Below, piece after piece: positions 2,135 through 25,865 of a stretch of 25,865 nt of DNA (within the stretch, counting starts at the first letter, position 1; every line of letters starts with the position of its first letter). Origin of the DNA: a virus. Below the pieces are notes generated by a model. That model was not told the origin of the DNA. It searched no databases and saw only the letters and a program-made list of their open reading frames with translations. The stretch is from positions 1-25,865 of IMG/VR virus record IMGVR_UViG_3300017989_000410; one strand, given 5' to 3'. A program made the position numbers and the translations under genes.

Positions 2135-2455
2135 ATGTTCAAGACTAAGCACAAGCCCGCGCCGAAAGATTCCTACTGTCCAAGCTGGGATGGTTCGTGT
2201 CCGTATTGCGGTCGCTTCTTGCCTGCTGAACTCGAAGCAGCGTATCGCGATCGCTGTGACAAGTTCGGCGACCCTGTCGGCGTTCACTACGTTGAGAATA
2301 CCGCCGCGTTTCACGCTCTTTGCCCCGGCTGCGAAAACGAGATCGGCGTAGCTGTCGATGCGTCGTTGACGGAATCGCATTACATACTTTTCGGGCCGAT
2401 GCGGATTAAGGCGGATCAGCGAAAGATTCTCTCGAAAGCAAAGGTGAAGAAATGA
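2135..2455 (+). CDS. Small zinc-ribbon protein between terminase and portal
   Basis: A 106-residue protein from the ATG at 2135. A pair of cysteine knuckles, CPYC and CPGC about 40 residues apart, forms a likely zinc ribbon. Extra cysteines precede the first knuckle (SYCPSWDGSC) and lie between the two. The frame also opens at a GTG at 2081 that overlaps the terminase stop as GTGA. That start would add 18 residues, but their codons (ATA, ACA, TGT) are unlike the neighbours and the stretch contains a repeat element, so I prefer 2135. The stop overlaps the portal ATG as ATGA, so translation is probably coupled. Small proteins in this slot are sometimes head-tail joining proteins, but this one resembles a nucleic-acid-binding or structural zinc protein. 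Role unknown. Confidence 0.7.
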   Translation: MFKTKHKPAPKDSYCPSWDGSCPYCGRFLPAELEAAYRDRCDKFGDPVGVHYVENTAAFHALCPGCENEIGVAVDASLTESHYILFGPMRIKADQRKILSKAKVKK

Positions 2456-4158
2456 GTCAGAGTCAACTTGATACCGTTCTTGAGAGTCAGGCAGTCGCCG
2501 AAGCGAAGCTCGCAACGGCGATCGCCGAGAACGAGCTTCACGCCGTCAAAGGCACGATGACGCATCTTCTCGAAGACGAATGGTCGCGGTCTGCGCCTGT
2601 CCTGACGCATCAAGACAGCACGCCGAGAACGGTCTTCGCATCGGCAACGACTCGCGTCGACGACCGAATGAATGGCCGCGATCGCGTTATCTTCGAGAAC
2701 GAAGTCGACCTGAATAAGATTCGACAAGCGGTTAGGATCGTTGCGAATTCGTCGGTCAATGCGATCGGCGCTCGAATGAACCTGACAAACTACGTTATCG
2801 GTACGGGGTTCCAGTACGAAGCCGTTGCTCGCGACGGCGTTCCTGAGAACCTTCGCGAAGACGCCGAGCGGGCGGCGGGTATCTGTCAAATGGCGATCGA
2901 CGCATTCGATGAACTCAACGTCTGGCAAGGCGACCTCGAACGCGAAGTCTACGATCGCACGAAGGTCGATGGCGAGCAACTGACGACTCTGTTCCCGCAA
3001 GCTGACGGAACCGTTGTCGCACGGCAAGCCGAGCCGGAACAGCTCTGCGAGCCGCCCGCCGAAGCACAGCGACACCTAGAAGACTGGCTCGGTCGCGGCG
3101 TCGATCGAGGGGCCCCGCCTCAATCTTGGTCGTTCGGAGTTCATAAGGATACCGACGACGTTCAGACGGTACACGGATATCATCTGCTTCGCGACGCGAA
3201 CGCGGCGAATTGGGAATACTACCCGTCGTCGGTTCAGGATTTGCGAACGCCGATGCTTCATCACATCAAGCAGAACGTCAACCGAAACACGAGTCGCGGA
3301 ATCAGCGACTTCTATTCGGTCATCGACGAAATCGTTCGCACCGACAAGACGCGACGCAATATCGGCGAGTCAGCGTCGGTCGCTGCTGCGATCGCTTGGA
3401 TTGAGCAGCACGCGCAGGGACAGACGGCTTCGACTGTCTCGAAGATGACGACGGCGAACCGGACGTCGCATTACAACGAGCGAACTCAGTACGGCGATCG
3501 GCAGCGCAGCGTTCAGCAGTACAATCCGGCGACGGTTCTGCGAATGGGCGGGAAAGAGTTCAAAGATGGGCCGATGGTCAACGGAGCGAACAACTTCATT
3601 CTCGTAATGCAGGCCGCGTTGCGGATGATCGGGGCTCGCTGGAACATGCCTGAGTTTATGATTTCGGGCGATGCGTCGAACGGCAACTATGCGTCGATCA
3701 AAGAAGCCGGAACGCCGTTCGTGAAGTTCGCTCAGCAAGAGCAACAGTTCTTCGCTCGGAACTTCCGTGAAATCATGTGGTCGGTCGTTGAATACGCTCG
3801 GCTCGCTGGTTGGTTCTCAAGTGTGAGTTCCGCCGTTCCATTGCGTCGGCTCGTGACGATCAACGTCACGCCGCCCGAAGTTGAGCAACGCGATCCGTTG
3901 TCGCAAGTTCAGATCGCTCAGGCTAAGCTCGCAATGGGCTACAGTAAGCACACGGTATTCGGCGGGCTCGGCGATGACTTCGAAGCCGAGCAAGCCCTGA
4001 AGACTGACGAACCCGTTTCGATCGGCCCCGGCCAAGCTGGCTCACTGGCTGGCGCAATGGAATCCTGCGACTCGGTCGAAGAGGCGGTCGAACTGACGAA
4101 CCGTCTCTTCGGTGATTCCGTCGAAGGCATGACGCAAGGAACGCTATGGCAGCTTTGA
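2452..4158 (+). CDS. Phage portal protein (lambda gpB-like)
   Basis: A 568-residue portal, the dodecameric ring at the capsid vertex through which DNA passes and to which the tail connectors bind. Supporting features are the N-terminal arm and the region NKIRQAVRIVANSSVNAIGA, the central GTGFQYE segment, and HHIKQNVNRNTSRGISDFY, which matches the conserved core in which portals of the lambda family carry R-G-x-S/P. The wing and stem helices that follow include NGNYASIKEAGTPFVKFAQQ, equivalent to the conserved N-Y-S-S-x-R segment. The ATG at 2452 has a good ribosome site (AAGGTGAAG) and overlaps the previous stop. The 3' end overlaps the minor head gene by 13 bases. Length is normal for the family. 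Confidence 0.9.
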   Translation: MSQSQLDTVLESQAVAEAKLATAIAENELHAVKGTMTHLLEDEWSRSAPVLTHQDSTPRTVFASATTRVDDRMNGRDRVIFENEVDLNKIRQAVRIVANSSVNAIGARMNLTNYVIGTGFQYEAVARDGVPENLREDAERAAGICQMAIDAFDELNVWQGDLEREVYDRTKVDGEQLTTLFPQADGTVVARQAEPEQLCEPPAEAQRHLEDWLGRGVDRGAPPQSWSFGVHKDTDDVQTVHGYHLLRDANAANWEYYPSSVQDLRTPMLHHIKQNVNRNTSRGISDFYSVIDEIVRTDKTRRNIGESASVAAAIAWIEQHAQGQTASTVSKMTTANRTSHYNERTQYGDRQRSVQQYNPATVLRMGGKEFKDGPMVNGANNFILVMQAALRMIGARWNMPEFMISGDASNGNYASIKEAGTPFVKFAQQEQQFFARNFREIMWSVVEYARLAGWFSSVSSAVPLRRLVTINVTPPEVEQRDPLSQVQIAQAKLAMGYSKHTVFGGLGDDFEAEQALKTDEPVSIGPGQAGSLAGAMESCDSVEEAVELTNRLFGDSVEGMTQGTLWQL

Positions 4159-7241: not shown

Positions 7242-8456
7242 ATGTTCCATAACGTTCGAGAAATGAGTCGGCTTCTCGAAGCCGCGAAACGAGATCAGGC
7301 TCGGTCTTCTGATCCGTATGCCCCGAATCGTTTTTACGTCGACTTGTACGAAGCGATTCAAGACCCAAGTCAGCGACCCGACTTGAAGGAGATCGGTCGA
7401 GCATCGATTCGCCGAATCTTCGAAGCCGTCGTTCCCGACGGTCGAGCGATTCTCGAATCGTGGCGACCGGGAACGCCTGAGTCGGCTCAAGCCCTGCTCG
7501 AAGGTCCGAACTCGATTCAGACGACCGACTTCAGCAACATTACCGGGCAACTGGTTTTCGCTGCTGTTCTCGAAGCTTGGGAGCAACCGCAGTTCATTGG
7601 TAGCGAACTCGTTACTGAGAAAACGACGGATATGCTCGATCAGGAGTTAATTCCCGGCATCAGCGGTCTCGGCGACATGGCCGAGACGTTCGGCGTCGTC
7701 GACGAAGGTGAATCATATCCGCTGGCTGGCGTGTCGGAAGAATACATCACGGTTCCGAAGAAGCGGAAGCGTGGTTTCATCGTCCCGATCACCAAAGAGG
7801 CAATTATCGGCGACAAGACTGGTCTCGTGATTCAGCGAGCTTCGGCCGTTTCGGAGTCGCTTGCTCTGAACAAAGAGAAGCGCATTCTTCACACGATCCT
7901 CGGTCTCGATACGATTTACAGCCGCAACGGTTCCGTCGCAACCGCGACGTATGCTGACAGCGGCTCGGCCCCGCACGATTTCGACAACCTCAACGACAAT
8001 GCGTTGAACGACGAAACCGATATCGAGGTCGCCGATCAAATCTTGAACGCGATCGTCGATCCGAATACGGGCGAACCGATCGTCGTGTCGCGACCTCAGT
8101 TGCTCGTTCCGCAAGCGTTGCGTCGCGAGGCGTTCCGTATGCTGAACGCGACGGAAGTTCGCGAGACGAGCGGAACGACCGTGACTCTCGCCGGCAAATC
8201 GCTTGAGCAAAACATTCAAATGCTCACTTCGCCTTACGTTAAGGTAAAGACGTCGAGTGATACCGGGTGGTATTACGGCGACTTCAAGAAGGCGTTCGCT
8301 TACTACACTGTTTGGCCGATCACGACCGAACAGGCACCGGCGAACAGCGAAGCCGAGTTCCGAAACGATATCGTCTCGCGGTTCAAGGTTTCCGAAATGG
8401 GAACGACCGCAGTCGAAGAACCACGGTACGTCTACAAGAGTACCGGAACATCCTAA
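7242..8456 (+). CDS. Major capsid protein (HK97-fold)
   Basis: A 404-residue protein in the major capsid position. It has an N-terminal helical arm (residues 1-70), then a core with an extended-loop-like strand region (EGESYPLAGVSEEYITVPKK) and the spine-helix region (ESLALNKEKRILHTILGL). An A-domain-like part (VSRPQLLVPQALRREAFRML) follows, with a C-terminal strand pattern ending SRFKVSEMGTTAVEEPRYVY. This layout is that of HK97-fold capsid proteins. No separate delta domain is evident, consistent with a separate scaffold. The ribosome site ACGGAGATCAGCC precedes the ATG. A long hairpin follows the stop. Identification rests on position, length and fold pattern, since sequence identity in this family is low. 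Confidence 0.85.
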   Translation: MFHNVREMSRLLEAAKRDQARSSDPYAPNRFYVDLYEAIQDPSQRPDLKEIGRASIRRIFEAVVPDGRAILESWRPGTPESAQALLEGPNSIQTTDFSNITGQLVFAAVLEAWEQPQFIGSELVTEKTTDMLDQELIPGISGLGDMAETFGVVDEGESYPLAGVSEEYITVPKKRKRGFIVPITKEAIIGDKTGLVIQRASAVSESLALNKEKRILHTILGLDTIYSRNGSVATATYADSGSAPHDFDNLNDNALNDETDIEVADQILNAIVDPNTGEPIVVSRPQLLVPQALRREAFRMLNATEVRETSGTTVTLAGKSLEQNIQMLTSPYVKVKTSSDTGWYYGDFKKAFAYYTVWPITTEQAPANSEAEFRNDIVSRFKVSEMGTTAVEEPRYVYKSTGTS

Positions 8457-10266: not shown

Positions 10267-11217
10267 ATGACTGCAACGACTCAATCTTCGCAACTGAAAC
10301 CGTTCTTGCTCGACCGTATTTCCGAAGGCGGCGCTCGCACTTGGGACGATACGTCAGACGGAATCTTCGCCTATGAGTCGGAGTCTATGAAGAAGACTCG
10401 ATCGGTCGTCTCGAAGGCGACCAGTCGGGGCACGCGATCGCACTTCGTCGACTCGACGCGGGAAGGGATTAACGTCGTCGGCGGTTCGATCACGTTCTAT
10501 CCGACGAAAGACGATCTCGATATCTGGCTGCCGCTGATCCTTGGCGAAGAAGAGTCGACCGACACGTTCGCTCTCGGCGAAACGCTGCCCTGGTTTGCCT
10601 TGCTGGTCGACAAGCTCGGCGGCGTTGCCAATGAGTACTTCGAATATACCGACTGCAAGGTGAACAAAGCGACGTTCCAATGCACCGCGAACGAACCTTT
10701 GAAGCTGACGGTCGATATCCTGGCAAAGACTGAGAATCTTGGTCAGGCATACCCGACATTGTCGGCTCTGGCTCTCGCCGATACGGCGGCAGCCTATCAA
10801 CCGTGGATGTTCCACGATCTCGCTTTGACGCTCGGCGGCGGAAGTCAGAAGGCTTACGATTGTTCGATCGTCATCGACAACGCTCTCGAAGTGAAGCACG
10901 CGAGCGGCGACCAAGATGCGACCTCGATCCAAGAGACTGATCGGATCGTAACTGTAGCCGTGACGACACCGTTCACGAACACGGAGAACACGAACTTTTT
11001 GCAAGACGACGTCGAAGGGACTTCGGGCTCTGCCGTCTTCACTCGTGGCACTTCTCCCGCCGATGCGCTGACGTTTACTTTTGGAGCGTTGCAAATGGAT
11101 GCCTTGGACACGCCGGGCGGCGGCGGTCGGGGCGAAGTAACGCTTCCTATCACGTTCACGGCACGGAAGCCCGACGCGGCGACTGCCGAACTCGTGGTTA
11201 CAAACGCAGACGGTTAA
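10267..11217 (+). CDS. Major tail tube protein
   Basis: 316 residues, beta-rich, in the major tail protein position between tail completion and tail chaperone genes. The segment VVSKATSRGTRSHFVDSTR followed by INVVGGSITFYPTKDDLDIW is the typical start of siphovirus tube proteins: a strand pair, a polar loop and a helix with a W-L-P-L-I-L-G turn. The second half (EVKHASGDQDATSIQETDR, then LPITFTARKP) completes a tube-type beta-sandwich. Hundreds of copies would stack as hexameric rings around the tape measure. The ribosome site TAGGAG lies before the ATG. No extra Ig domain is evident at the C-terminus. Confidence 0.75.
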   Translation: MTATTQSSQLKPFLLDRISEGGARTWDDTSDGIFAYESESMKKTRSVVSKATSRGTRSHFVDSTREGINVVGGSITFYPTKDDLDIWLPLILGEEESTDTFALGETLPWFALLVDKLGGVANEYFEYTDCKVNKATFQCTANEPLKLTVDILAKTENLGQAYPTLSALALADTAAAYQPWMFHDLALTLGGGSQKAYDCSIVIDNALEVKHASGDQDATSIQETDRIVTVAVTTPFTNTENTNFLQDDVEGTSGSAVFTRGTSPADALTFTFGALQMDALDTPGGGGRGEVTLPITFTARKPDAATAELVVTNADG

Positions 11218-21999: not shown

Positions 22000-22212
22000 T
22001 CAATCGTCTTCGCATTCGATCGTCGGCGTCTTGTATGGCACGAGCGACGACTTCTTGATTCGCAAGGGGTATCCTCTTTGCTTGACGACGTCGAGCTTCT
22101 GTTCGCGAATCATTTGATAGATTCGAACTCTCGACTTCCCGATGAACGCAGCCGCTTCGAATGTGTCGAGTAGCTGCTCGTTTTCTCCGATCGCTTCGCT
22201 TGCGATATCCAT
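22000..22212 (-). CDS. Excisionase/AlpA-like helix-turn-helix DNA-binding protein
   Basis: 70 residues, a single small winged-helix of the HTH_17/MerR-like type. The pattern LLDTFEAAAFIGKSRVRIYQ, then MIREQKLDVVKQRGYPLRI and SSLVPY, gives the two recognition helices and the beta wing. Such proteins act as excisionases, AlpA-type activators or small repressors. This is the only minus-strand gene in the window. GGAG lies seven bases before its ATG, and a TATAAT lies about 50 bases upstream on the minus strand (22261-22266). It faces away from the GTGCGC cluster and reads into the late operon. A switch or recombination-directionality role is plausible. Confidence 0.8.
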   Translation of the reverse strand: MDIASEAIGENEQLLDTFEAAAFIGKSRVRIYQMIREQKLDVVKQRGYPLRIKKSSLVPYKTPTIECEDD

Positions 22213-22250
22213 ATCGCGACTCCAATCCGTTTAAGGTAAGCTCGAACAAA

Positions 22251-22278
22251 CGACAACGTGATTATAGGTTTCGATCGC
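22251..22278. repeat. 28-base element, copy 2 (with 2074-2101)
   Basis: It shares 24 of 28 positions with 2074-2101, core GTGATTATAG. On the minus strand the core gives a perfect TATAAT that could serve the helix-turn-helix gene starting at 22212. ATTATAGGT occurs again at 22669-22677. Confidence 0.5.
22261..22266 (-). promoter_or_regulatory. Possible -10 of the helix-turn-helix gene
   Basis: A perfect TATAAT on the minus strand. Transcription would start roughly 40 bases before the gene's ATG. The -35 position 17 bases upstream reads TGGATT, a poor match, so activation or autoregulation may be needed. Confidence 0.35.
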
Positions 22279-22307
22279 CGTCGAATCCATAGTCTCGGAT
22301 TGGTGAC

Positions 22308-22458
22308 ACACGCGCACGGCGCACACTAATAGGGAACATTTTAGGTTCGCGCCGAGCGAGAAACGGCTGTGCGCGTGCGCGACCTCGATTAAGTCGTTAG
22401 CTAGCAACGGAGAAACCAGCGCACGGCCGTTCTCGAACCGCTGTGCGCGGTGTGCGCT
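22308..22458. repeat. Cluster of seven GTGCGC/GCGCAC hexamers
   Basis: GCGCAC occurs at 22312, 22319 and 22419; GTGCGC at 22369, 22375, 22443 and 22452. They are mostly paired with 0-3 bases between and alternate in orientation (two inverted, two direct, one inverted, two direct). Iteron-like clusters of this kind serve replication initiators, partition proteins or repressors. The adjacent helix-turn-helix gene is one candidate partner. Confidence 0.6.
22357..22435. repeat. Inverted repeat, arms 22357-22374 and 22419-22435
   Basis: The left arm CGAGAAACGGCTGTGCGC and right arm GCGCACGGCCGTTCTCG are complementary except for one extra A and one T/C difference, which is a G-U pair in RNA. The 44-base spacer holds one GTGCGC and an AT-richer stretch. 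It overlaps the hexamer cluster. Confidence 0.7.
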
Positions 22459-22523
22459 TGCTCAAATCGGACGAACCAAACTTGGCGACGATCAGGTTCG
22501 AGCCCGATCTTCTCTATTTACTA
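22458..22523 (+). repeat. Repeat copy B: segment encoding K-S-D-E-P-N-L-A-T-I
   Basis: The second copy of the segment at 159-225, in the same orientation. The open frame continues through PDLLYLLTRGLRRRRRSRS. It has one base fewer than copy A between CCCGATC and the TAT that follows. Confidence 0.75.
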
Positions 22524-22538
22524 ACGCGAGGCTTGCGG

Positions 22539-22590
22539 CGTCGCAGGCGATCGAGGTCGCTCGCGTGTGATATGTCGTCGCAGGCGATCG
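22539..22590 (+). repeat. 15-base direct repeat, CGTCGCAGGCGATCG
   Basis: Perfect copies at 22539-22553 and 22576-22590, 37 bases apart start to start. The repeat is a possible binding site pair just upstream of the promoter at 22636. Confidence 0.65.
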
Positions 22591-22635
22591 GCCGCGAGAA
22601 CGGCTCTGAGGGGCTCGAAGAAATTTTTGGTTTTT

Positions 22636-22665
22636 TTGACGTCTAGTAGTTTTTGGGGTTTTAAT
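22636..22665 (+). promoter_or_regulatory. Sigma70-type promoter for the downstream genes
   Basis: TTGACG at 22636-22641 and TTTAAT at 22660-22665, each five of six to consensus, are spaced by 18 bases. Transcription would start near 22672 and give a leader of about 145 bases before the gene at 22817. The leader shows no obvious riboswitch. Confidence 0.5.
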
Positions 22666-22816
22666 CTCATTATAGGTCTGATAGATTTGGGCTTAGTTGA
22701 GTGAGGCTTCATTCAACGATCTGAACAGTCACAGAAAGGCAAGATCGAACGACTGACCCTCTTCAAGTTCCTGACGCCGAGCGGCGTCGCAGATTTTCAG
22801 TGAAGGAGATTTTTCG

Positions 22817-23233
22817 ATGGGTGACAGAGCAAACGTTGTAATCAAGACCGGGCCGTTCATGCACGACGCATTTGTTGTCTATTCGCATTGGGCGGGAACC
22901 GAACTTCCGCAACTCGTTCAAGATGCGTTGAACAGCGAACACGCAAAGTCGCGAGACGGCGACCCCGCGTATCAAGCCCGAATCTTAGTGTCGAAGATTA
23001 TCCCCGCCGAAGCTCACGGCGAAGAGGGCGGTTGGGGCTTGTCTCACAGGATCGAAGACAACGAAGCAGGTCGACCCGTTCTCGTTGTCGATCTTGACGA
23101 CAAAGAAGTTTGGATCGCGAACGAAGATGCGATCAACGTTTCTAAAAATCGTTGGAGCTTCGACGACTTTCGCGAGATCAAACGGCCGGAAGGTCGCCCG
23201 CTGACCTGGGAGCATCTTGCGGTCAACGGATAA
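22817..23233 (+). CDS. MGDRANV-type hypothetical phage protein
   Basis: 138 residues with the opening MGDRANVVIKTG followed by VVYSHWAGTELPQLVQDAL and DPAYQARILVSKII. I recognise this pattern from small proteins found in phages and some bacteria: an MGDRANV start, a Y-x-H-W-x-G-x-x-L-P motif, and DPAY-x-x-R-I. Their function is not known to me. AAGGAG lies nine to ten bases before the ATG. The gene is the first after the promoter at 22636 and is closed by a strong intrinsic terminator, so it forms its own transcription unit. The abundance of such genes beside DNA-metabolism modules suggests an early or auxiliary role, an inference only. Confidence 0.75.
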   Translation: MGDRANVVIKTGPFMHDAFVVYSHWAGTELPQLVQDALNSEHAKSRDGDPAYQARILVSKIIPAEAHGEEGGWGLSHRIEDNEAGRPVLVVDLDDKEVWIANEDAINVSKNRWSFDDFREIKRPEGRPLTWEHLAVNG

Positions 23234-23323: not shown

Positions 23324-24526
23324 ATGTCGAACGATCAACAAGTTCACGGCGAATTCAGCATTAGCCCTTGGTCCGGTCGCGGAACGCTCGAACAAATGGT
23401 CGGCGAGCTTCAGCGTCAGCTCGATACGAAAGTCGACTTCGTGTGTGATACTCGCGGCTTGAAAGCCGTCGTCGAGACGACCGAAGATGATCGTCGCTAT
23501 ATGCGGCTTCAGCCCGTCGATCGACAAGTTGGCGAGTTCATCGCAAGCGACGGTCTTCGTCTCACTCCCGAAGCGATGGTTCAGGTCGCGACGCGGCAGA
23601 CGCCGAAGATTCCGACTCGGTTCTTCCGCGAGCTTTTCGAGCAGCAGCCGGTCGCAGCCGTTCGCCTTGTCAATGAGCTAATGGCGAAGGCTCCGTCGCG
23701 ACGTCTGCTTCGCTGTCTCGACGGTAACGTTCGGGCGTTTCTCAGCGATCGCTATCGCGTCATGGATAATTACGATCTCGCTGTTGCGGCTCTCGGCGTT
23801 GCTCGTGAGCATGGCGGCGAAGTCGTCGAGGCGTCTCTGAGCGACACGAAGATGAGAATCAAGATCACTTCGCGTTCGGTCTTCGATGCGATCGACGAAG
23901 AACGAAAGGCGGGCGATCGCGGCTCGTGGTACGTGGGCGGAATGGGCGATCAAAAGTACCTTCGCCGCGTCGGTGCGAATTCGGGCGGGCAACTGCCGGG
24001 CGGTCCCGGCACGGTTCACCCTGTCGTCACGATCTCGAACAGCGAGACCGGGCAAGGCGGCTTGAACGTTCGCGTCGGCATCTTGCGGGCGATCTGCTTC
24101 AATATCGCAACCGTCGAAGACGTCGCTTGCAATATCCACCTGGGCGAACGTCTCGAAGAAGGCATCTTCACCGCAGAGACGATCTCGGCTGAATCGAAGT
24201 CGATCATGCTGAAGGCTCGCGACGGCATCAAGGCGGCGTTCAAGCCGGAAGTCTTCAAGCGTCTTGTCGCTCGCTGCCGCGACGCGGAAAGCGACAGGAT
24301 CGAAGCCCCGTCGGCTGCTGTCGACGCTCTCGTGAGCAACACGGAACTCAAAGACGAGCATCGCGACGAAATCTTGTCGCATTTCATTCGAGACTACTCG
24401 CCGACACGCTACGGATTGGCGCAAGCCGTCGCTCGGTTTTCTCAGGAGGTCGAAGACGTCGAAGCGTCGTCGTCGATGGAAGACTACGCGGGTAGCTTGA
24501 TTGGCTCTGGCGAACTGCTGAAATAG
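23324..24526 (+). CDS. DUF932-family phage/plasmid-like protein
   Basis: 400 residues. The diagnostic core is RAFLSDRYRVMDNYDLAVA near residues 137-157, followed by strands, a Gly-rich loop and HPVVTISNSETGQGGLNVR near residues 231-250, then RAICFNIA. This is the DUF932 (TIGR03299, phage/plasmid-like protein) pattern. The biochemical role of the family is not established; members occur in phages and plasmids, often near replication or recombination genes. The C-terminal 130 residues are helical. The ATG follows AGAGAG in an A-rich leader. The gene begins about 50 bases after a strong terminator, so it needs read-through or its own promoter, which I cannot see. Confidence 0.85.
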   Translation: MSNDQQVHGEFSISPWSGRGTLEQMVGELQRQLDTKVDFVCDTRGLKAVVETTEDDRRYMRLQPVDRQVGEFIASDGLRLTPEAMVQVATRQTPKIPTRFFRELFEQQPVAAVRLVNELMAKAPSRRLLRCLDGNVRAFLSDRYRVMDNYDLAVAALGVAREHGGEVVEASLSDTKMRIKITSRSVFDAIDEERKAGDRGSWYVGGMGDQKYLRRVGANSGGQLPGGPGTVHPVVTISNSETGQGGLNVRVGILRAICFNIATVEDVACNIHLGERLEEGIFTAETISAESKSIMLKARDGIKAAFKPEVFKRLVARCRDAESDRIEAPSAAVDALVSNTELKDEHRDEILSHFIRDYSPTRYGLAQAVARFSQEVEDVEASSSMEDYAGSLIGSGELLK

Positions 24527-24610: not shown

Positions 24611-24940
24611 ATGGCCGACGAATACGAATGCGACGAATGCGGGGCTTGCTGCCGAAACTCGATCGTCGAGGTTTACGAACTCGACTGTCAGCGAGAACCG
24701 AAGGTCGCGGCGGCGGCGACGCCGTTCAAAGAGTTGGGCGAGGGCGGCGAGTTCGCCTTGCTCTACGATCACGTTCGCAATTGTTGTCCGCTGCTCGGCG
24801 AAGATAACCGATGCACAACTTACCCGACTCGACCGACCTGCTGCGTTGGAATGCAGGCGGGCGGCGAACAGTGTCAGGCATTCCGCGAACAGTCCGGCTT
24901 AGAGCCTCTCAAGCCTCTCAAGCCGGTTGAGTCCTGTTGA
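24611..24940 (+). CDS. YkgJ-type cysteine-cluster protein
   Basis: 109 residues. The N-terminus CDECGACC (Cys 7, 10, 13, 14), the middle NCCPLLGEDNRCTTYPTRP (Cys 58, 59, 68) and the later TCCVG and EQCQAFR match the YkgJ family, annotated as zinc- or iron-chelating (CxxCxxCC ... C ... RPxxC). The family's usual order, CxxCGxCC then CPxL and C-x-x-Y-x-x-R-P, is intact. The ligand and role of phage members are unknown. AAAGGAAAGG precedes the ATG. A small tandem (CCTCTCAAG twice, giving PLKPLKP) occurs at the C-terminus. The gene lies between the DUF932 and MGCDIH genes in what looks like an auxiliary operon. Confidence 0.8.
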   Translation: MADEYECDECGACCRNSIVEVYELDCQREPKVAAAATPFKELGEGGEFALLYDHVRNCCPLLGEDNRCTTYPTRPTCCVGMQAGGEQCQAFREQSGLEPLKPLKPVESC

Positions 24941-25755: not shown

Positions 25756-25865
25756 ATGCAAGAACTATCAGCTACCGAATCACCCGTCGATGAAAGCACA
25801 CCGGCAGCTTCGCCCCCTGTTAATCCTTTTTACACGCCAGCAACCACGCAGCAGGACGAACCAAA
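25756..25865 (+). CDS. N-terminal fragment of an unidentified protein, runs off the window
   Basis: The frame from the ATG at 25756 is open to the end of the window (36 complete codons). The visible part is Ser/Thr/Pro/Glu-rich and looks disordered (STPAASPPVNPFYTPATT), typical of an N-terminal tail before a folded domain. It ends in QQDEP, so the function cannot be told. An AGAAAGGCAAGG leader lies about 17 bases upstream. The last 11 bases, GACGAACCAAA, repeat the start of the 17-base block at 171 and 22470, and in the same reading phase. Confidence 0.6.
   Translation, partial: MQELSATESPVDESTPAASPPVNPFYTPATTQQDEP

What the first reader, a model, noticed from the sequence alone, without database searches (positions are those of the whole stretch)
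22308..22458. Iteron-like cluster of seven GTGCGC/GCGCAC hexamers with an inverted repeat
Seven copies in about 150 bases, mostly paired and alternating in orientation, plus an 18-base arm inverted repeat, form the densest symmetric structure in the window. It could be a replication origin, a partition site, or the operator of a genetic switch.
Basis: seen in the sequence. Interest (0 to 1): 0.65.

Follow-up and report, generated by a model that had tools for sequence, protein, structure and literature searches.

The report
Paired-hexamer control region in a phage
An uncultured tailed-phage fragment has an unusual knot of seven short repeated DNA words in the gap between a small DNA-binding-protein gene and a rightward gene block; it is most likely a landing site for a regulator that controls both, with a replication origin as the main alternative.

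Summary
Seven of the window's eight GTGCGC/GCGCAC hexamers lie at 22312-22457, in the order --, ++, -, ++. No hexamer clusters nearly as strongly in 60 simulated sequences of the same composition. Beneath them are four 13-nt units. Three share the consensus AACSGCYGTGCGC, and two of these form a 30-bp near-palindrome (22419-22448). A and D pair, and B and C pair, as nested inverted repeats. The array is non-coding and sits in a 604-nt gap between a leftward 70-aa HTH_17 (excisionase-like) gene and a rightward block of phage genes (presumed early). It lies just upstream of that gene's likely promoter, which has a perfect TATAAT. GCGC is the most avoided palindromic tetramer in the window, yet is 25 times denser here. 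Best reading: a multi-site operator between divergent promoters (about 0.5). A replication origin is the main rival (about 0.2). An attP/Xis array fits less well, because spacing and orientation fail the Xis/Cox/Apl rule. No relative with the array was found: the closest relatives by the second rightward gene (56% and 41% identity) lack it. Conservation, binding and function are therefore untested. The record is an incomplete virus fragment.

The parts
22312..22324 (-). Unit A: GTGCGCCGTGCGC, two hexamers 7 nt apart
22362..22380 (+). Unit B: AACGGCTGTGCGC (22362-22374) plus a second, directly adjoining hexamer GTGCGC (22375-22380)
22419..22431 (-). Unit C: AACGGCCGTGCGC, one hexamer
22436..22457 (+). 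Unit D: AACCGCTGTGCGC (22436-22448) plus second hexamer at 22452-22457
22419..22448 (.). 30-bp near-palindrome formed by C and D (13-nt arms, 11 of 13 complementary, 4 nt between); candidate dimer operator
   Evidence: (I8)
22309..22460 (.). Outer inverted repeat A/D (18-nt arms, 78% complementary) enclosing inner inverted repeat B/C
22000..22212 (-). P0001, 70-aa helix-turn-helix protein (Pfam HTH_17 just above its cut-off; weak excisionase matches), candidate regulator; GGAG ribosome-binding site upstream of ATG
22261..22289 (-). Likely promoter of P0001: TGGATT-17-TATAAT; -10 is a perfect hexamer, -35 weak
22636..22665 (+). Candidate promoter of the rightward block: TTGACG-18-TTTAAT (10 of 12), in an AT-rich stretch
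22817..23233 (+). P0002, first gene of rightward block (phrog_31860, function unknown)
23324..24526 (+). P0003, second gene of rightward block (phrog_1362, function unknown)

Best explanation
The cluster is a multi-site operator in the control region between a leftward HTH gene and a rightward block of phage genes. A dimeric or cooperatively binding regulator, possibly the neighbouring 70-aa HTH_17 protein or a protein encoded in the missing part of the genome, recognises AACSGCYGTGCGC half-sites. It would bind the C/D palindrome first, then add B (74 bp, about 7 helical turns, from D) and A, closing a loop or nucleoprotein complex that sets the balance between the leftward promoter, whose -35 ends about 22 bp from unit A, and the rightward promoter, about 180 bp from unit D. 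Shown: the sites, their arrangement, the non-coding setting, the flanking genes and the clustering far beyond chance. Inferred: that a regulator binds there, its identity, looping, the promoters and the direction of control.
For: Clustering far outside simulations. Non-coding by codon score. Located between a leftward HTH gene and a rightward gene block. Perfect TATAAT, present only four times in the window, about 45 bp from unit A on the HTH gene's strand. Three 13-nt half-sites agreeing at 11-12 of 13 positions and a 30-bp near-palindrome; the three best matches to that motif in the window are the sites it was built from, and the fourth scores well below. GCGC is the most avoided palindromic tetramer (observed/expected 0.36) yet is 53 per kb here against 2.1 per kb elsewhere, which argues for retention by function.
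Against: No binding data and no relative with the array: searches found none, and the second-gene relatives L016 (56%) and L017 (41%) lack it. The spacing of units (38, 69, 5 nt) is irregular. The array is about 180 bp from the rightward promoter candidate, far for simple repression. The HTH match is short and weak. Promoter calls are consensus matches only, and the tool's stricter scan found none.
Confidence: 0.5

Rival explanations
1. Replication origin of the phage: an initiator binds the repeated units and opens the AT-rich stretch 22613-22712.
For: Repeated sites next to a 100-nt stretch of 34-38% GC in a 56% GC genome, at the start of a gene block, a common place for phage origins (general knowledge).
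Against: No sign change in GC skew, no DnaA-box excess and none near the cluster, no initiator gene recognised in the window, sites not evenly spaced direct repeats. The AT-rich stretch also holds the rightward promoter candidate, which explains it equally well.
Confidence: 0.2
2. Part of a phage attachment site or excision complex: the HTH_17 protein is an excisionase (Xis) and the units are Xis or integrase arm sites.
For: P0001 matches excisionase models weakly (phrog_4691 E 0.004; TIGR01764 below cut-off). A 52-nt partly repeated segment abuts the cluster.
Against: Xis, Cox and Apl sites are direct repeats one helical turn apart (PMC7498355); these are inverted or 6-9 nt apart. No integrase recognised in the window, no IHF consensus, no tRNA. 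The 52-nt repeat differs mainly at third codon positions, not like an att core.
Confidence: 0.12
3. The strand is transcribed and the nested inverted repeats fold into a structured leader or small RNA.
For: Plus-strand RNA fold of 22295-22470 at -75.3 kcal/mol, z -3.0; a second ACCTATAAT on the minus strand at 22669 could drive leftward transcription through it.
Against: Inverted protein-binding sites give such a fold automatically; minus-strand z is only -1.9; no Rfam match; no relatives to test covariation.
Confidence: 0.07
4. Partition (centromere-like) site of a phage-plasmid.
For: Paired, inverted sites resemble some centromere arrays in general layout (general knowledge).
Against: No ParA- or ParB-like gene among the ORFs searched; nothing else points to plasmid life.
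Confidence: 0.03
5. A remnant of inserted foreign DNA rather than a functional site.
For: Local composition (GCGC density) differs strongly from the rest.
Against: Ordered, alternating, near-identical units are not expected of decayed random DNA; no match in phage or plasmid records.
Confidence: 0.08

Closest known systems
Phage 186 pR-pL region with seven Apl operators (and P2 Cox boxes)
   Same: Seven 6-bp sites in a phage control region, bound by a small excisionase-type protein; sites between promoters (PMC7498355).
   Different: Apl sites are direct repeats every 10-11 bp between face-to-face promoters; here sites are in close pairs of alternating orientation between divergent genes, and the regulator is unknown.
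Lambda-type divergent operators (OR/OL)
   Same: Several near-identical, dyad-related sites in the gap between divergent promoters; looping between separated sites (general knowledge).
   Different: Lambda operators are separate 17-bp palindromes overlapping promoters; here only C/D form a palindrome and no unit clearly overlaps the best promoter candidates.
Iteron origins (lambda ori, P4 ori/crr, plasmid iterons)
   Same: Repeated short sites beside an AT-rich stretch.
   Different: No initiator gene seen, no regular spacing, no skew switch.

Membership tests
Xis/Cox/Apl-type recombination directionality factor sites | Direct repeats about one helical turn (10-11 bp) apart | tested here: not met
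   Hexamer starts are 7, 50, 6, 44, 24, 9 apart with alternating strands; rule from PMC7498355
Xis/Cox/Apl-type recombination directionality factor sites | Small wHTH excisionase gene nearby | tested here: inconclusive
   HTH_17 27.4 bits against cut-off 27; excisionase models sub-threshold; structure model too poor to use
Xis/Cox/Apl-type recombination directionality factor sites | Integrase gene and attP | tested here: inconclusive
   None found among searched ORFs, but the record is a fragment
Iteron replication origin | Regularly spaced direct repeats bound by an initiator | tested here: not met
   Irregular, alternating units; no initiator gene recognised in the window
Iteron replication origin | Adjacent AT-rich unwinding region | tested here: met
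   22613-22712 at 34-38% GC, but also a promoter candidate
Iteron replication origin | GC-skew switch or DnaA boxes | tested here: not met
   many phage origins lack both
Divergent-promoter operator array (lambda-like, in the broad sense) | Repeated dyad sites in the gap between divergent genes | tested here: met
Divergent-promoter operator array (lambda-like, in the broad sense) | A regulator that binds them and controls both promoters | not testable with these tools
   needs binding and reporter assays
Partition site (parS) | Linked parA/parB genes | tested here: inconclusive
   None among the ORFs searched; genome incomplete

The most novel reading that the evidence does not exclude
The array is a methylation- or restriction-sensitive switch: in a genome that avoids GCGC, GCGC sites are kept in one dense control array whose occupancy is set by a GCGC-specific host or phage methylase.
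Probability: 0.04. Interest if true: 0.65.

Novelty: new member of a known kind. Interest (0 to 1): 0.3.

Why it matters
It marks the likely control centre of an otherwise uncharacterised phage group and gives a testable 13-bp motif (AACSGCYGTGCGC). If the HTH_17 protein binds it, it would show an excisionase-type protein working on inverted close pairs rather than the usual helical-turn direct repeats.

Tried and rejected
A viral-contig pattern hit (L004) with similar spacing proved to be a chance match inside a tail gene of a GC-rich phage. Reading the cluster as coding (stop-to-stop frame 22307-22570, ORF 22443-22646) was rejected by codon scores and lack of family matches. The idea that the right flank is a decayed copy of the gene at the contig start held only for a 52-nt core; a recalled resemblance of that gene's end to OmpR-type winged helices gained no support. 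Searches with the HTH protein and P0002 found no relative contigs (P0002 has only distant homologues in actinophages). A single-sequence structure model of P0001 was too poor to search (pLDDT 57). Clusters of similar strength in 0.9 Mb of related phage loci, where inspected, were mostly tandem or coding repeats.

Full report
What the window is. It is a 25,865-base linear virus record, with terminase large subunit at 627-2084, portal at 2452-4158, capsid at 7242-8456 and a minor tail protein at 10267-11217, so a tailed-phage fragment with its structural genes on the + strand. No tRNA is present. At 22000-22212 a 70-aa HTH_17 protein is encoded leftward, and from 22817 a new rightward block begins with P0002 (phrog_31860) and P0003 (phrog_1362), both of unknown function. 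P0003 homologues sit near integrase, repressor or recombination genes in Faecalibacterium phage Roos, Mycobacterium phage Bipper and Pseudanabaena phage Pam4, which fits an early or control region. That the block is 'early' is an inference.

The observation. GTGCGC occurs eight times, seven of them at 22312-22457. With a scan statistic over hexamers, the cluster scores 10^-15, against 10^-5.6 for the best of 60 order-3 Markov simulations. The underlying units are A GTGCGCCGTGCGC (-), B AACGGCTGTGCGC (+), C AACGGCCGTGCGC (-) and D AACCGCTGTGCGC (+). C and D form a 30-bp near-palindrome; B and D lie 74 nt apart; A pairs with D and B with C, which is why the strand folds well (plus-strand RNA z -3.0). 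The palindrome alone would not be remarkable in 26 kb by a rough count; its repetition in B and the clustering are.

Setting. Codon scores give no clear coding signal across the gap 22213-22816. On the minus strand a perfect TATAAT lies at 22261-22266, suitable for the HTH gene, with a weak -35; the same 9-mer ACCTATAAT recurs at 22669. On the plus strand TTGACG-18-TTTAAT at 22636-22665 is the best promoter candidate for the rightward block. The tool's own stricter scan found none, so promoters are leads only. GCGC is the most avoided palindromic tetramer in the window (observed/expected 0.36), but 8 of 62 copies are in the cluster, 53 per kb against 2.1 per kb elsewhere.

Comparison. No phage or plasmid record resembles the region. 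Patterns for the paired hexamers, the C/D palindrome and the abutting 52-nt repeat found no true relative among viral contigs. Searching with a profile of P0003 gave 80 loci; the two closest, L016 (56%) and L017 (41%), have no GTGCGC cluster. Conservation therefore could not be tested in a near relative, and absence in moderately distant ones is weak evidence either way, because operators change fast (general knowledge).

Interpretation. The best reading is a multi-site operator for a regulator acting on the flanking promoters. The closest experimental parallel in number and size of sites is phage 186, where seven 6-bp Apl operators lie between pR and pL (PMC7498355); but those are direct repeats 10-11 bp apart, a defining feature not met here, so this is not filed as an Apl/Cox/Xis array. 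RdfS, another excisionase-type wHTH, binds its own promoter and attP without a clear consensus motif (PMC11963761), so excisionase-like proteins do act at promoters. An origin is the main rival: the AT-rich flank is present, but a skew switch, DnaA boxes and a recognised initiator are not. The window does not contain the rest of the genome, so absence of integrase, initiator or partition genes is not proof.

Noticed in passing
159-210, 22458-22509, 25855-25865: A 52-nt segment is repeated (77% identity) beginning one base after the last hexamer; the 12 differences fall 4/0/8 on codon positions 1/2/3 of the frame L.KSDEPNLATI, as in a shared coding segment, yet homology stops at its ends. Eleven bases of it (GACGAACCAAA) are also the very end of the contig, in the same frame (DEPN).
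   Followed up: partly
1-25865: GCGC (observed/expected 0.36) and GGCC (0.47) are depleted, and CTCGAG, TGATCA, CCGCGG, ACGCGT, GAGCTC, ACCGGT and AGATCT are absent although about 5-15 sites of each are expected: strong palindrome avoidance suggesting restriction pressure in the host.
   Followed up: partly
22261-22269 and 22669-22677 (- strand): The 9-mer ACCTATAAT occurs twice in the window, both in this gap and both leftward; the second could start a transcript running through the cluster into the HTH gene.
   Followed up: partly
1-312: The open frame at the contig start seems to shift frame near 198 (GATCGATC), the downstream frame continuing as ...DRYILTGVRGAGYRL...; sequencing error or a broken gene. 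No family match for either piece.
   Followed up: partly
24611-24940: A CxxCxxCC (zinc/iron-chelating) domain protein is encoded in the rightward block (Pfam PF03692, above cut-off).
   Followed up: no
L012: The only P0003 relative found in the genome collection (29% identity) lies on a 25,902-base contig binned as Candidatus Methanoperedens; a binning artefact or a provirus.
   Followed up: no
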